Shown piece by piece: positions 28,073-36,345 of a stretch of DNA of 64,000 bases. Position 1 is the first letter of the stretch, and the number at the start of each line of letters is the position of its first letter. The notes under the pieces are model-generated. The model worked only from the letters and a program-made list of their open reading frames with translations. It made no database searches and was not told the DNA's origin. Source of the DNA: Kribbella sp. ALI-6-A (GTDB lineage: Bacteria > Actinomycetota > Actinomycetes > Propionibacteriales > Kribbellaceae); assembly GCF_001984195.1 (NCBI RefSeq), contig NZ_MTQN01000007.1, positions 310,001 to 374,000 of the forward strand, read 5' to 3'. The position numbers were made by a program, and so were the translations under genes.

Positions 28073-28978
28073 ATGGAGTCGTTGGCGGGCGACCTGCTTG
28101 GGCCGGTCGGGCTGGCGCGGCGGTGAGGTGCGGTTGTGGTCGCGTAACGGCAACGACTTCACCGCGAAGTTCCCCGACGTCCAGGTCGCGCTGGCCCGGC
28201 AGGTCGACGTCGACTGTGTTCTCGACGGCGAACTGGTGGTGTGGACCGGGAACCGGCTCGACTTCGACGCACTGCAGCAGCGGATGGCCAGCACCGCGGC
28301 AACGGTGCGGCGCCGCCTGGCCCCGGCCCAGCCGGCGTCGTTCGTCGCCTTCGATGTCCTCGCGATCGACAGCGTCGATGTGCGCCCGATGCGCTGGACT
28401 GCTCGCCGTACCCGGCTGGAATCCCTCGCGGCCGGCTGGACGCCACCGCTGCAACTGTCCCCGGCCACCGCCGACGCCGACGAGGCCATGGAGTGGCTGG
28501 AACCGTTCAAGACCAGCGGCGTCGAAGGCCTGGTCGTCAAAGGCGCCTCCAGCCGGTACCTGCCAGGCCGGCGGGAGTGGCTGAAGGTGAAGCACCGCGA
28601 CACCGTTGAGGCGATCATCGGCGCCGTCACCGGGTCCCTGCAGCACCCCGAAATCTTGGTCGTCGGCCGCTACCGCGGCAAGGAACTGAAGTGATCGGCC
28701 GCACGGTCAAGCTGAAGTCCGACCAGGCGGCCGTACTCGCCAAGCTACTGAAACCGGCCTCGGCCAGGCACCCGTGGCCCGACCAGATCGCCACCCATTG
28801 GGGTAAAGGCAGCAAAACCCCGATCATCAAGGTCCAGCCCAAGGTCGTCGTCGAAGTCGCCGCCGACGCGGCCCTGCAGGCCGGCCACTACCGGCACCCG
28901 CTGCGACTCATGCGTCACCGAGCTGACGTGCAGCCCGAAGACGTCCCCACACTTCCTGAGATCAGTGCGGGCAGCTGA
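28073..28978 (+). pseudogene. ATP-dependent DNA ligase remnant, copy 1 (catalytic lysine region deleted, frameshifted)
   Basis: An initial ATG (28073, preceded by GGGGGG) encodes MESLAGDLLGPVGLAR, the ligase N-terminus. Sequence then jumps frame to GGEVRLWSRNGNDFTAKFPD, so the KWDGYR adenylation motif is deleted. The adenylation domain continues (VDCVLDGELVVW, FVAFDVLAIDSVDVR, VEGLVVKGASSRYLPGRR, WLKVKH) and ends at GKELK by a one-base deletion. The following frame carries the OB-fold part (IGRTVKLKSDQAA through VVVEVAADAALQAGHYRHP) to 28978. Copy 2 (35851-36345) keeps the base lost here. Without its catalytic lysine it cannot ligate DNA. Such enzymes join nicks, often in NHEJ-like repair. 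Confidence 0.8.
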
Positions 28979-30872: not shown

Positions 30873-31079
30873 TTACTGTTCTTCAGTATTGCGCGGTTTG
30901 GTTTTTGCGCGTTTGGTGAAGAATAAGATAAAGACTAAAGCGATTGAAAGGGCTGCAATAAGTACGCCAATGCTTTGATTTCTGGTCAGCCCTGCTAGAG
31001 CTGCGAGGGCGCCAAGCAGAATCCCTGCGATGAATATTGTTAGAGAGATTGCTCTATAGTTTTTCTTAGGCTGACTCAC
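30873..31079 (-). CDS. AT-rich two-helix membrane protein, candidate immunity protein for the RHS toxin
   Basis: 68 aa from GTG 31079, with AAGGA nine bases upstream. Two hydrophobic helices are visible (ISLTIFIAGILLGALAALAG, then SIGVLIAALSIALVFILFF) with a basic tail (TKRAKTKPRN), so it is an inner-membrane hairpin. By hand count 30901-31080 is about 44% GC, far below its surroundings, a sign of recent transfer. It is the first gene downstream of the RHS protein on the same strand (94-bp gap with a strong hairpin), the usual position of an immunity gene. A longer frame upstream (to 31421) only overlaps the RHS 3' end. The immunity role is inference from position and topology. Confidence 0.68.
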   Translation of the reverse strand: MSQPKKNYRAISLTIFIAGILLGALAALAGLTRNQSIGVLIAALSIALVFILFFTKRAKTKPRNTEEQ

Positions 31080-31126
31080 TGGTGAGCTTCCTTGAGGTTT
31101 CGAATGATCTGATCTGCAGGCGAACA

Positions 31127-31165
31127 GTGATCCGGAGCGACTCAGGGATGCCTGCTCCGGATCAC
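31127..31165 (-). terminator. Hairpin between the RHS gene and the AT-rich membrane gene
   Basis: Perfect 12-bp stem GTGATCCGGAGC / GCTCCGGATCAC with a 15-nt loop, starting 8 bp after the RHS stop codon. It has no clear U-run. It may terminate or attenuate transcription between the two genes. Confidence 0.65.
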
Positions 31166-31173
31166 CGATCATC

Positions 31174-34100
31174 CTAATCGTCGTCAAGTAGTCCTTCAGT
31201 GACGACGTAGCCGATTCCGAATCCAAGGCCAGCGGCTCCCCCGATAGCTGTACCAGGGCCGATGCTGAAGATGGAACCGGCGGCCGCGCCGATGGTAGTC
31301 GTCGTGCCGATGAATCCGAGGTCGGAACGGAAGTCGGCGTCCGAGTATAGACCGGTGGGGTCAATCCTGTTGGCTGGATTCCCGCTGGCATAGGAGTACC
31401 GGCTCGCCTCGTCTGGCGCAAGCAGGAAGCTGAGGGGGTCTTGGCTGGTCCAGTTGGCGGTGGTGGTGTCGTGGAAGCGAACGCCTCGTTTGAGCCAGCC
31501 GGTTTGGTCGTCGAGGAGACCGGCGGTGTAGCGCAAGGGGTTGACCGTGGCGGAGGTTCCGGTGGAGGTCATCTGCTTGCCGGCGGGATCATAGGTGTAG
31601 GTCGCGGTCACCGTGCCCGTGTTGTTGACCAGGCCGATCGGTGAGCCTTGGTTGTCGAGGGTGTAGTAGTCGACACCAGTGCCGGTGTTGAGAGCGATGG
31701 GCGAGCCGGTGGGGTCGGTGTCGAGGTAACTGATCTGGCCGTTCTTGATGAACGACGAGATGATCGGCACGCCGTTCCGGTCGTTTTGGCCGTAGACATA
31801 ACTGGTGGTGTTGGTGCCACTGGTGGTGGAGACGAGTTCGTTCTGGTCGCCGCCGCCCCAGGTGTAGGTACTCGAGGACGAGCCGTTGGTGCGAGCCGTC
31901 ATCTGGCCGGCGGCGTTGTAGGTGAAGGTGCCCTGGGCCGGGTCGGCGGTGCGATTGCCGGCGGCGTCGTGGCTGTAGCCGGCGGAGCTGATCTGGTTGG
32001 CGGTGTTGTACGCCAGGCCCTGGACCTGGACGCCGTCGATCTTTGTCGAGGTGCGGTTGCCGGCCTTGTCGTAGGCGTAGACATAGTCGCGGCCGCCGTA
32101 GTTCGTCACGCCGGTGAGCCGGTTGGAGGTGTCGTAGCTGTAGATCGACCGAGCGGCATTCAGGTTGTTGACCGACCAGCGGATGACGCCGGTGTCGGTC
32201 GTCGCTGTCGCGGACGGGCAGGCCTGGCCGGAGACGTAAGGGGAGTAGCAGAACGAGGTGTCGTAGACCTTGGTGGCGTCGTTGGAGGCGCGCGACGTCC
32301 AGGTGCGCGAGATCCGCCCGGCCTTGTCGAAGGTGGTCTTGGTGTGCGCGGCGAACGTCGTCCGGGCGGTGTTGGTGTTGAACCAGGTGTCGGTGCGTTT
32401 GCCGTTGGCGTCGTAGGCGAACGCGGTGGCCTGACCGTTCGGCGTCGTCATCGACACAACCTGGTTCGCGGCGTCGTACGTGTAGACGGTGGTGCCCCGC
32501 GGATCGGTCTTCGACGTCAGGTTCCCGGCCTTGTCGTAGCCGTAACCGAGCGTTCCACCGCCAGAGGTCGACGTACGGGAGGTGACGCGGTTCTGGGCGT
32601 CGTAGGTGTACGTCGTGGTGCCGGAGGCGTCGGTGCGGGTCAGCACGTTGCCGGCGCCGTCGTAGGTGAATGCGACGTCGGGGGTGGTGTCGGAATACTG
32701 GATGGTCTTGATCCGGTCGGCGCGGTCGTAGGCGTAGATGGTGCGCAGCCCGCGGCCGTCGCGGACGCTGTGCAGCCGCCCGAACCCGTCGTAGTCGACC
32801 ACGACCGGCGCCAGCGACGATCCGGTCGGCGGGGTGATGTTGGTCAACTGGTGGTCGGCGTTGACGGTGTAGTCGGTGACGTTGTCCCGCGGATCGGTGG
32901 AGGTATTCAGCGTGCCGTCGGCGTTGTAGTCGACCTTGGACGTCGCGGTCGCGGAACTGTTCGCCGAGGTGAGCTGGTTGCCGGCGCCGTCGTAGGTGAA
33001 GAGCTTGTTGTTGCCCTGGGTGTCGGTACCGCCGGACGGCAGGTACTTCGCGGCGCCGGTGTTGGCGTAGGCCGCGGTTGACTTCGCGCCGGTGGCCGAC
33101 GTGACGCCGGTCAGGGATTCGCCGCCGTTGACGGCCGAGTTGTAACCGAAGGTGGTGACCCCGGAGACGCCGTTGGTCGAGGTCGCGACATCGTTGAACG
33201 CGGTGTAGGTGTTGGCCCGAGAACGGCCCACCGGGTCGGAGACTGAGGTTACCAACTCCTGTGCGTTCAGCGTGTAGTAAGTCTGCGGGCCCTCGGACGG
33301 GATCGTGGCGGTGTTGTTCGGGTCCGCGACGTAGGTTTCACCGTTGGAGTAATAGGTGAACCGGGTCGCCGCGCCGCCGGCCGGGTTCTGCTGGGTCACC
33401 TTCTTCACCCGGTGGGAGACGTCGTACTGGATGGCGGTCTGCTTGCCCTCGCCGTTGGTGATCGTGGTCAGGTCGCCGGTGGTCGCGTCGTACCCGAACT
33501 GGGTCGACTTCGAGGTCGGGTCGGTGATCTTGGTCAGTTTGCCGTTGGTATAGGTGTAGCCGACGCTGCGCGGGGTGCCGTCGTCGCCGGCCTGGGCGAT
33601 CGTGACCAGGCTGCCCGACCAGGTGAAGTTCGCCGTCTTCGCGCCCGCTCCGCCGCGCGTGGAGACGACCTGGGACAACTTGCCCGAGGTGTAGGTGAAC
33701 GTCGCGGACTGGCCGTTGCGGTCCTTGATCGACACCAGCTGACCGGTCGAGTTGAACGTCGACACCTGGTTGCTGGAGTGGTCGGTGATCGTCCACCCCG
33801 TACTCGTTTTCACCATGGTGACCTTGAACCCCGCGGGAGCGGTGTACGTCGTTGCGGTGGCGGGCTGGAACAGGCCCTCTCGGCCTTCCGGTGCCAGGTA
33901 GAGCACCGAGTTGTCGGAGTTCAGGATCACCTTCGTGTCCTGACCGACCCGCATCGCCCAACCCGCACCGGCCGAACCAGACGGCAGAGCAGCTCCCGCG
34001 GCGAGCCGCAGGCTGTTGTAGTCCAGACCGAGCTGCAGATCGCCCTGGATCCCCGGCAACAACAGATCGGACGTGGTGACCAGCAGGTTTCCAGTGGCGA

Positions 34101-34302
34101 CATCGACCGAGGCCGACACCTTGTCAGAGATCGAGAACGGGATCCGCGTCGCCGACGGACGCGCCCCGGTGAACTGGGCAGTGAGAACTGCCGCTGTGCT
34201 GGCCTCGGCTGGCAGCGCGGCGATCGCGCCCCCGGAAAAGAGCGTCAATACAGCGGCGGCCGCGCTGACGGAACGACGAGAAGACAGACTTCGGGCAAAC
34301 AA
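31174..34302 (-). CDS. Secreted RHS/YD-repeat protein with a short glycine-zipper C-terminal tip
   Basis: About 1042 aa from TTG 34302, with GGGGG seven bases upstream; a GTG at 34362 would add 20 residues. A clear signal peptide starts the protein (FARSLSSRRSVSAAAAVLTL, cleavage after AEA). The body carries many YD repeats (FTYDGAGN, YAYDRADR, YGYDKAGNLTSKTDPRGTTV), which form a beta-barrel shell around a tip in known RHS proteins. The RHS core ends at about residue 990 with the GNPANRIDPTGL boundary motif. After it only about 50 residues remain, rich in Gly/Ala (GFIGTTTTIGAAAGSIFSIG, then GTAIGGAAGLGFGIGYVVTE). This suggests a membrane-inserting toxin rather than a nuclease. The next gene is a candidate immunity protein. 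Confidence 0.9.
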   Translation of the reverse strand: MFARSLSSRRSVSAAAAVLTLFSGGAIAALPAEASTAAVLTAQFTGARPSATRIPFSISDKVSASVDVATGNLLVTTSDLLLPGIQGDLQLGLDYNSLRLAAGAALPSGSAGAGWAMRVGQDTKVILNSDNSVLYLAPEGREGLFQPATATTYTAPAGFKVTMVKTSTGWTITDHSSNQVSTFNSTGQLVSIKDRNGQSATFTYTSGKLSQVVSTRGGAGAKTANFTWSGSLVTIAQAGDDGTPRSVGYTYTNGKLTKITDPTSKSTQFGYDATTGDLTTITNGEGKQTAIQYDVSHRVKKVTQQNPAGGAATRFTYYSNGETYVADPNNTATIPSEGPQTYYTLNAQELVTSVSDPVGRSRANTYTAFNDVATSTNGVSGVTTFGYNSAVNGGESLTGVTSATGAKSTAAYANTGAAKYLPSGGTDTQGNNKLFTYDGAGNQLTSANSSATATSKVDYNADGTLNTSTDPRDNVTDYTVNADHQLTNITPPTGSSLAPVVVDYDGFGRLHSVRDGRGLRTIYAYDRADRIKTIQYSDTTPDVAFTYDGAGNVLTRTDASGTTTYTYDAQNRVTSRTSTSGGGTLGYGYDKAGNLTSKTDPRGTTVYTYDAANQVVSMTTPNGQATAFAYDANGKRTDTWFNTNTARTTFAAHTKTTFDKAGRISRTWTSRASNDATKVYDTSFCYSPYVSGQACPSATATTDTGVIRWSVNNLNAARSIYSYDTSNRLTGVTNYGGRDYVYAYDKAGNRTSTKIDGVQVQGLAYNTANQISSAGYSHDAAGNRTADPAQGTFTYNAAGQMTARTNGSSSSTYTWGGGDQNELVSTTSGTNTTSYVYGQNDRNGVPIISSFIKNGQISYLDTDPTGSPIALNTGTGVDYYTLDNQGSPIGLVNNTGTVTATYTYDPAGKQMTSTGTSATVNPLRYTAGLLDDQTGWLKRGVRFHDTTTANWTSQDPLSFLLAPDEASRYSYASGNPANRIDPTGLYSDADFRSDLGFIGTTTTIGAAAGSIFSIGPGTAIGGAAGLGFGIGYVVTEGLLDDD

Positions 34303-35850: not shown

Positions 35851-36345
35851 CGTCGACAGCGTTGACGTGCGACCGCTGCGCTGGACCGCCCGCCGTACCG
35901 GGCTGGAGGCCTTCCGGACGGCTGGACGTCGCCGATGCAGCTGTCTCCGGTCACCGCCGATGTCGACGAGGCCAAGGAGTGGCTGGAAGCGTTCAAGGCC
36001 AGCGGCTTCGAAGGCCTCGTCGTCAAAGGCGCCTCCAGCCGGTACCTTCCCGGGCAGTGCGAGTGGTTGAAGGTACACCGCGACGCAGTCGAAGCGATCA
36101 TCGGCGCCGTCACCGGTTCCCTGCAGCACCCCGAGATCTTGGTCGTCGGCCGCTACCGCGGCAAGGAACTCGAGATGATCGGCCCGACGGTCAAGCTGGA
36201 AACGGACCAGCAGCAGGACCCCGATCAATCAAGGTGCAGCCGCAGCTCGTCGTCGAGGTCGCCGCCGACGCTGCTCTGCAAGTCGGCCACTACCGCCACC
36301 CGCTGCGCCTGGTCCGCCACCGCGCCGACCTCCGGCCAGCGACGT
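35851..36345 (+). pseudogene. ATP-dependent DNA ligase remnant, copy 2
   Basis: Begins inside the adenylation domain (a trace of IDSVDVRPLRWTARRTGLEA), with a frame change before MQLSPVTADVDEAKEWLEAF. It continues in frame through GFEGLVVKGASSRYLPGQ to EILVVGRYRGKELEMIGPTV. After TVKLETDQ an internal deletion removes part of the OB domain and a frame shift follows before the VVEVAADAALQVGHYRHPLR trace. It lies in the same orientation as copy 1 and is nearly identical along 28368-28720 by eye. The N-terminal third including the catalytic Lys is absent, so it is inactive. Confidence 0.75.

What the first reader, a model, noticed from the sequence alone, without database searches (positions are those of the whole stretch)
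30873..34302. RHS protein with a glycine-zipper tip followed by an AT-rich two-helix protein: candidate pore-forming toxin-immunity pair
The RHS shell ends at the DPTGL boundary and only about 50 residues follow, rich in Gly and Ala with repeated G-x3-G spacing, which looks like a membrane-inserting segment rather than a known nuclease or deaminase tip. The next gene downstream encodes a 68-aa two-helix membrane protein at about 44% GC (hand count, 30901-31080), a sign of separate acquisition. In known polymorphic toxins the immunity gene lies right after the tip. A secreted RHS carrier with a tiny glycine-zipper tip would be an unusual subclass.
Basis: partly seen in the sequence, partly recalled or inferred. 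Interest (0 to 1): 0.85.

Follow-up and report, generated by a model that had tools for sequence, protein, structure and literature searches.

The report
RHS cage with membrane-toxin-like tip
A soil bacterium carries a secreted protein cage ending in a tiny glycine-rich, membrane-seeking tip, followed by a small membrane protein that probably protects its maker, and comparison with many relatives suggests a large, little-noticed family of caged antibacterial peptides.

Summary
An RHS gene (31174-34302, minus strand) ends 57 residues after DPTGL in a Gly/Ala-rich segment. A 68-aa, two-helix membrane protein is encoded 94 bp further on; no 207-bp window of the 64 kb is as GC-poor (44%). The GxxxG pattern of this one tip is not significant alone (P=0.075), but strong across similar tips.

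Four related proteins are 67-75% identical to this one, yet no column after DPTG is invariant; the 90%-identical own-genome paralog diverges at the tip. In 203 non-redundant actinobacterial RHS tips, 46 of 83 short Gly/Ala-rich tips are followed by a small gene with at least two TM segments, against 4 of 120 other tips (p=4e-18). Related tips have related partners more often than chance. Orphan tip modules occur.

Best reading: a polymorphic toxin-immunity system in which a compact exported RHS cage carries and releases a membrane-inserting glycine-zipper peptide. Activity is untested, structure models failed, and the two closest tips lack a matching partner.

Kinds known: Tse5/Tsi5, TelE, Cdz, Tox-WTIP. 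New here: an actinobacterial class of very short tips that I found described in none of eight paper searches. New variant of a known kind.

The parts
31174..34302 (-). RHS (YD-repeat) carrier protein with variable tip; TTG start preferred, longest ORF to 34362
   Evidence: ORF; RHS_repeat, YD_repeat_2x, Rhs_assc_core over cut-off; alignment with relatives
34201..34302 (-). Predicted N-terminal signal peptide (hydrophobic stretch, AxA-like end)
   Evidence: Hydropathy and sequence; cleavage site by eye, not computed
31363..34200 (-). RHS shell and core domain (cage)
   Evidence: sequence relatives of solved Rhs and teneurin shells
31438..31440 (-). First Asp of the putative aspartyl autoprotease (SQDPL, residue 975 from the GTG)
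   Evidence: Invariant in A1 (5 proteins) and in the 11 shell ends of A2; role by analogy with Tse5
31348..31362 (-). DPTGL: second Asp (residue 1001) and predicted release site
   Evidence: role by analogy with Tse5
31177..31347 (-). 57-residue Gly/Ala-rich tip, proposed membrane-inserting glycine-zipper toxin
31087..31093 (-). AAGGAAG, likely ribosome-binding site of the small gene
   Evidence: Sequence
30873..31079 (-). 68-aa two-TM membrane protein, proposed immunity protein (alternative ATG start at 31172 gives 99 aa)

Best explanation
This is a polymorphic toxin-immunity locus. A compact RHS protein is exported through a signal peptide; its beta-cage encloses a 57-residue hydrophobic glycine-zipper peptide. 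The cage's own aspartyl protease cuts after DPTGL. On meeting a target cell the peptide is released, inserts into the cytoplasmic membrane, packs by G-x3-G contacts and makes it leaky or depolarised. The 68-aa two-helix protein sits in the producer's membrane and blocks assembly of its cognate peptide. Shown here by sequence comparison: RHS shell plus variable tip, swapping of the tip, recurrence of small membrane genes behind such tips, above-chance co-occurrence of related tips with related partners, coding constraint in relatives. Inferred: caging, cleavage, insertion, killing, protection.
For: Shell conserved and tip not: no invariant column after DPTG in five proteins; break at the tip boundary against the own paralog. 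Association: 46 of 83 against 4 of 120 non-redundant tips (p 4e-18); of the four, L163 is a 66-aa hydrophobic tip just under the G+A rule. In L021-L130, fetched only for an RHS-core match, 7 of 12 against 5 of 96 (p 2e-5), or 7 of 12 against 3 of 94 by the rules. Antisense control 2 of 52. Loci from family f22: 19 of 34 against 0 of 7 (two of its genomes, G428 and G515, were already in the class sample). Co-occurrence: of 29 pairs with related tips (z>=7), 10 have related partners (z>=5); 2000 permutations give mean 0.85, maximum 5. Tips of L139, L134, L165 all go with 4-TM instead of 2-TM partners. Glycine i+4 z 7.4. Charge: tips negative in 42 of 46, partners positive in 45 of 46; other tips negative in 60 of 120. 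dN below dS for tip and partner in 6 of 6 relative pairs computed. Orphan tip modules in L015, L052, L162. Both Asp of the Rhs autoprotease motif invariant. Tse5 precedent: the shell carries an integral-membrane toxin and cleavage is needed; immunity protein Tsi5 has two TM regions.
Against: 37 of 83 short tips have no such gene under my rule, and these show the same glycine pattern (37 tips, i+4 z 7.8), so the pattern does not depend on a partner. The window tip's closest relatives, L012 (z 12) and L011 (z 8), lack a matching gene; L011's neighbour is a longer 2-TM protein with weaker relatives in 17 of the other 37 genus genomes. Seven of the 20 tip pairs with z>=10 have partners with z below 4. 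Over all pairs of a first set there was no rank correlation. The window tip's own GxxxG excess is not significant. Other RHS tips also show an i+4 excess, though weaker (z 4.3, n=120). Basic partners are expected of many small membrane proteins anyway (general knowledge). Structure models failed (pLDDT 39 and 50). No toxicity data.
Confidence: 0.7

Rival explanations
1. The Gly-rich segment is a translocation (pre-toxin) stretch left after loss of a larger enzymatic tip; the small gene is an unrelated insertion.
For: Gly-rich stretches also begin some long tips (for example L021 and L107) and other tips have a mild i+4 signal; the small gene has unusual GC; L012 has the tip without the gene.
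Against: Related tips end alike: L012 shares the tip and its acidic end; L007 and L020, from different genomes, have similar tips (by eye) ending at the same place. Tips show dN below dS in 6 pairs. Small membrane genes recur behind such tips.
Confidence: 0.1
2. The tip is a membrane anchor: the RHS protein is a surface adhesin held by a C-terminal hairpin, and the small protein helps it insert.
For: Tips are hydrophobic and partners are membrane proteins.
Against: An anchor should be conserved, but tips are the most variable part, swap sharply, occur as orphan modules and lie behind an invariant autoprotease motif.
Confidence: 0.12
3. The tip is a toxin but does not act on membranes, for example by binding an intracellular target, with a membrane partner that blocks entry.
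For: Some short tips in similar carriers look beta-rich by eye and not like TM helices (L019, L164, L166, L184, L185), and L184 and L185 have 2-TM partners; other Gly-rich tips have soluble proteins behind them (L018, L145, L149).
Against: Short tips with partners have few Lys/Arg (2% against 10%) and, as a class, helix-packing glycine spacing.
Confidence: 0.15

Closest known systems
Tse5/Tsi5 (Pseudomonas aeruginosa Rhs pore-forming toxin; PMC9637101, PMC10684867, passages seen)
   Same: Rhs shell carrying a membrane-inserting C-terminus; two-Asp autoprotease motif; immunity protein with two predicted TM regions
   Different: Tse5 is PAAR/T6SS-delivered with a 149-residue toxin; here a signal peptide and a 57-residue tip; sequence relation between the tips was not tested
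TelE/TipE (PMC10434224, passages seen) and EsxX (PMC12744356, search listing only): LXG toxins with glycine zipper
   Same: C-terminal glycine zipper, membrane damage, sequence variants (TelE)
   Different: LXG carrier and T7SS; TipE is a soluble DUF5085 protein
CdzC/CdzD/CdzI and class IIb bacteriocins (PMC5380434, passages seen)
   Same: Small hydrophobic GxxxG proteins, small TM immunity protein
   Different: No RHS cage; type I secretion; CdzI has three predicted TM domains
Tox-WTIP (PMC3482391, passages seen)
   Same: Small hydrophobic two-helix toxin domain, also found on RHS carriers
   Different: Stated as restricted to proteobacteria, with RxxR and W-TIP motifs, which the window tip lacks
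CDI ionophores (PMC11630599, abstract and passages seen)
   Same: Polymorphic membrane-depolarising toxin with polymorphic immunity proteins
   Different: CdiA carrier; five-helix ionophore domain with an entry domain

Membership tests
Rhs/YD-repeat polymorphic toxin | RHS repeats and Rhs_assc_core | tested here: met
   RHS_repeat E 5e-52; Rhs_assc_core 51.4 bits against cut-off 32.5
Rhs/YD-repeat polymorphic toxin | Conserved shell, C-terminal tip exchanged at the DPxG boundary | tested here: met
Rhs/YD-repeat polymorphic toxin | Paired Asp of the autoprotease | tested here: met
   D975 and D1001 invariant; both also invariant in the 11 shell ends of A2; activity not tested
Rhs/YD-repeat polymorphic toxin | Cognate immunity gene right behind the tip | tested here: inconclusive
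   Candidate present in the window and behind 46 of 83 short tips, the window among them; protection untested; absent behind the two nearest tip relatives
Glycine-zipper pore-forming toxins | GxxxG pattern above chance in a membrane segment | tested here: inconclusive
   Not significant for this tip (P=0.075); strong for the class (z 7.4)
Glycine-zipper pore-forming toxins | Membrane depolarisation or damage | not testable with these tools
   Needs expression and dye assays
Tox-WTIP | RxxR and Wx[ST]IP motifs | tested here: not met
   The 57-residue tip has one Arg and no Trp (sequence); definition from passages of PMC3482391
Class IIb bacteriocin | Free small peptide(s), not part of a large carrier protein | tested here: not met
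   The tip is the C-terminus of an RHS protein; definition partly recalled, partly

The most novel reading that the evidence does not exclude
Actinobacteria have a large, undescribed class of compact (mostly about 1,030-1,230 aa) exported RHS carriers that work as caged bacteriocins: the cage is a chaperone that lets a 50-110-residue membrane peptide be exported harmlessly, with many exchangeable tip families each matched by its own small 2-TM, 4-TM or soluble immunity protein.
Probability: 0.45. Interest if true: 0.8.

Novelty: new variant of a known kind. Interest (0 to 1): 0.62.

Why it matters
If right, the tip-partner pairs are a ready set of very small membrane toxins with small immunity proteins (46 partner ORFs of 52-130 codons, median 70.5), small enough for synthesis and structure work. 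They would show how a hydrophobic peptide can be stored in and released from a cage, and how soil actinobacteria compete. Standard family libraries hardly see them: among 24 tips and 22 partners scanned, the one partner I found over a curated cut-off just passes Pfam DUF308, a family of unknown function (26 against 25 bits).

Tried and rejected
AlphaFold2 of the whole RHS protein with five sequences gave pLDDT 39, and of the tip alone 50; both unusable, so no fold search was run. A complex of tip and partner was not modelled. Family scans of 24 tips and 22 partners gave weak hits. Those tables print cut-offs for the first member only, so I rescanned 9 of the 22 partners singly: one, from L031, passes DUF308; the HdeD-family hit (22.6 bits against 189) and the others fall short. 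The tips and the other 13 partners were not rescanned for cut-offs. Regex approaches for tip boundaries found 21 and 33 tips and were replaced by a home-made core HMM. A rank correlation over all 406 pairs of a first set was null (rho 0.05, p 0.28). A PDB search with the tip alignment gave nothing significant (best E 0.088). Paper PMC9424270 was not held.

Row handling: of 225 rows, those with under 450 bp downstream or tips under 45 aa and a wrong-frame L052 ORF (by hand) were dropped, leaving 87 + 123 (49 and 4 with a partner); 83 + 120 after an 80% identity filter. The window is one of the 83 (as L131). Loci came from searches with P0002 (tip included), the core family, the shell-end profile A2 (no tip) or P0001 (L131 only); I picked further places from the printed lists by rank or short frame, before seeing their tips. 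The S rule (45 to 112-113 aa, G+A at least 0.25) was set after seeing the first tips; thresholds of the ORF rule differ slightly. The thinning to 36 tips was by hand and left some relatives in (both L162 tips and L140). Partner ORFs take the most upstream start, so some are too long. The L001/L012 line failed with a script error. Labels beta-rich and soluble are by eye.
Full report
What is there. The minus strand carries an RHS protein (31174-34302; longest ORF to 34362) with an N-terminal hydrophobic signal-like stretch, RHS repeats and an Rhs_assc_core domain. After DPTGL come 57 residues, Gly/Ala-rich, ending in DDD. A gene for a 68-aa two-TM protein follows 94 bp downstream (30873-31079), with AAGGAAG before its GTG. 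A longer form from an ATG at 31172 is possible. Its GC of 0.44 is matched by none of 1276 207-bp windows (step 50) of the 64 kb.

Where it lives. The carrier is patchy: 5 of 38 genus genomes (6 copies, two of them in this genome), 8 of 391 in the order at E<=1e-100, the same five among them, and 3 of 394 in the class sample at E<=1e-150, this genome included. Named relatives are Lentzea cavernae, Amycolatopsis pretoriensis and two Kribbella.

The tip is swapped. Four relatives are 67-75% identical to the window protein, but no column after DPTG is invariant. Against the paralog on contig 10 of the same genome, DNA identity of 90% stops about 10 bp into the DPTG codons, and that paralog has another Gly-rich tip and another two-TM gene starting right at its stop. 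Not all tips differ: that of L012, from another Kribbella genome, is related to the window's (49% in the A3 alignment; z 12).

Is the pairing general? I took 148 genomes of the class, found RHS cores in 66, and read 30 tool-chosen loci and 80 further places. I then searched 200 genomes of each of two families (f40, f22; unnamed) with a profile of shell ends (further stretches). Short tips (45-113 aa, G+A at least 0.25) were compared with all other tips of at least 45 aa. A same-strand ORF of 45-140 aa with at least two TM segments, starting within -60 to +250 bp of the stop, follows 46 of 83 short tips and 4 of 120 others (non-redundant; p 4e-18); 43 of the 46 have two TM segments and 3 have four. 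In L021-L130, sampled without regard to shell type, it is 7 of 12 against 5 of 96, or 7 of 12 against 3 of 94 by the later rules. The antisense control gives 2 of 52. The last-added family f22 gives 19 of 34 against 0 of 7, with two genomes shared with the class sample.

Do tips and partners travel together? Among 1035 pairs of loci, 29 have related tips (z at least 7), and 10 of these also have related partners (z at least 5). Shuffling partners gives a mean of 0.85 and a maximum of 5 in 2000 trials; among 923 pairs with tip z below 3, 19 have related partners. Three related 92-93-residue tips (L139, L134, L165) all have 126-130-aa four-TM partners. Three tips that look related (L018, L145, L149) are followed by soluble-looking proteins of 96-115 aa that look alike by eye. 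Some related tips do not have related partners: 7 of 20 pairs with tip z at least 10 have partner z below 4. Immunity proteins of CDI ionophores are reported to vary even more than the toxins (PMC11630599). In six pairs of relatives dN is below dS for both genes. N-terminally truncated RHS pieces with their own tips lie behind other RHS tips in L015, L052 and L162, a usual sign of orphan toxin modules (general knowledge).

What the tip does. The class shows a helix-packing glycine pattern: i+4 159 against 103 expected (z 7.4), with deficits at i+1 and i+2 (36 tips with partners, thinned by hand). Short tips without a detected partner show it too (37 tips, z 7.8), other tips less (120, z 4.3). 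The window tip alone is not significant. Short tips with partners carry little Lys/Arg (2% against 10% in longer tips) and are acidic in 42 of 46, while partners are basic in 45 of 46. Tse5 gives the mechanistic model: its shell acts as chaperone for an integral-membrane toxin and cleavage is required; its immunity protein has two predicted TM regions. The two Asp of that protease motif are invariant here, 26 residues apart against 23 in Tse5.

Against. The nearest relatives of this very tip, L012 (z 12) and L011 (z 8), lack a matching small gene: none within about 5 kb downstream of L012, and behind L011 a longer 2-TM protein with weaker relatives in 17 of the other 37 genus genomes. So the class-level case is stronger than the case for this pair. 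No structure could be modelled. Nothing here shows toxicity.

Known or new. In the searches made (open-licence PMC only; listings, and passages of seven papers) I found Rhs pore-formers in T6SS, glycine-zipper LXG toxins, Cdz proteins and the proteobacterial Tox-WTIP, but no description of short glycine-zipper tips on actinobacterial RHS carriers. I class it as a new variant of a known kind.

Noticed in passing
window 28424-28935 and 35910-36337: Direct repeats (82-94% alike) of ATP-dependent DNA ligase fragments (28131-28691 matches Pfam DNA_ligase_A_M, E 3e-27) flank the RHS locus about 7.4 kb apart; a related fragment also lies near the second RHS copy (L229:8253-8792, 55%).
   Followed up: partly
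L184, L185 (similar by eye: L019, L164, L166, L151, L187, L213, L219): A second kind of short tip on similar carriers, apparently beta-rich; the tips of L184 and L185 are related and are followed by related 2-TM proteins (z 15 each).
   Followed up: partly
L018, L145, L149; L168: Gly-rich tips followed by small soluble-looking proteins instead of membrane proteins; possible soluble immunity proteins.
   Followed up: partly
families of G480 and G445: Compact RHS carriers (open frames mostly about 1,030-1,230 aa) mostly score above the long RHS proteins (about 1,800-4,000 aa) and seem a subfamily that carries the short tips; a few of 1,540-1,640 aa lie among them.
   Followed up: partly
G000:C3:531468-531746 (L003, L004, L006): Short RHS fragments (57-73% identical to the window shell) elsewhere in the same genome.
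   Followed up: partly
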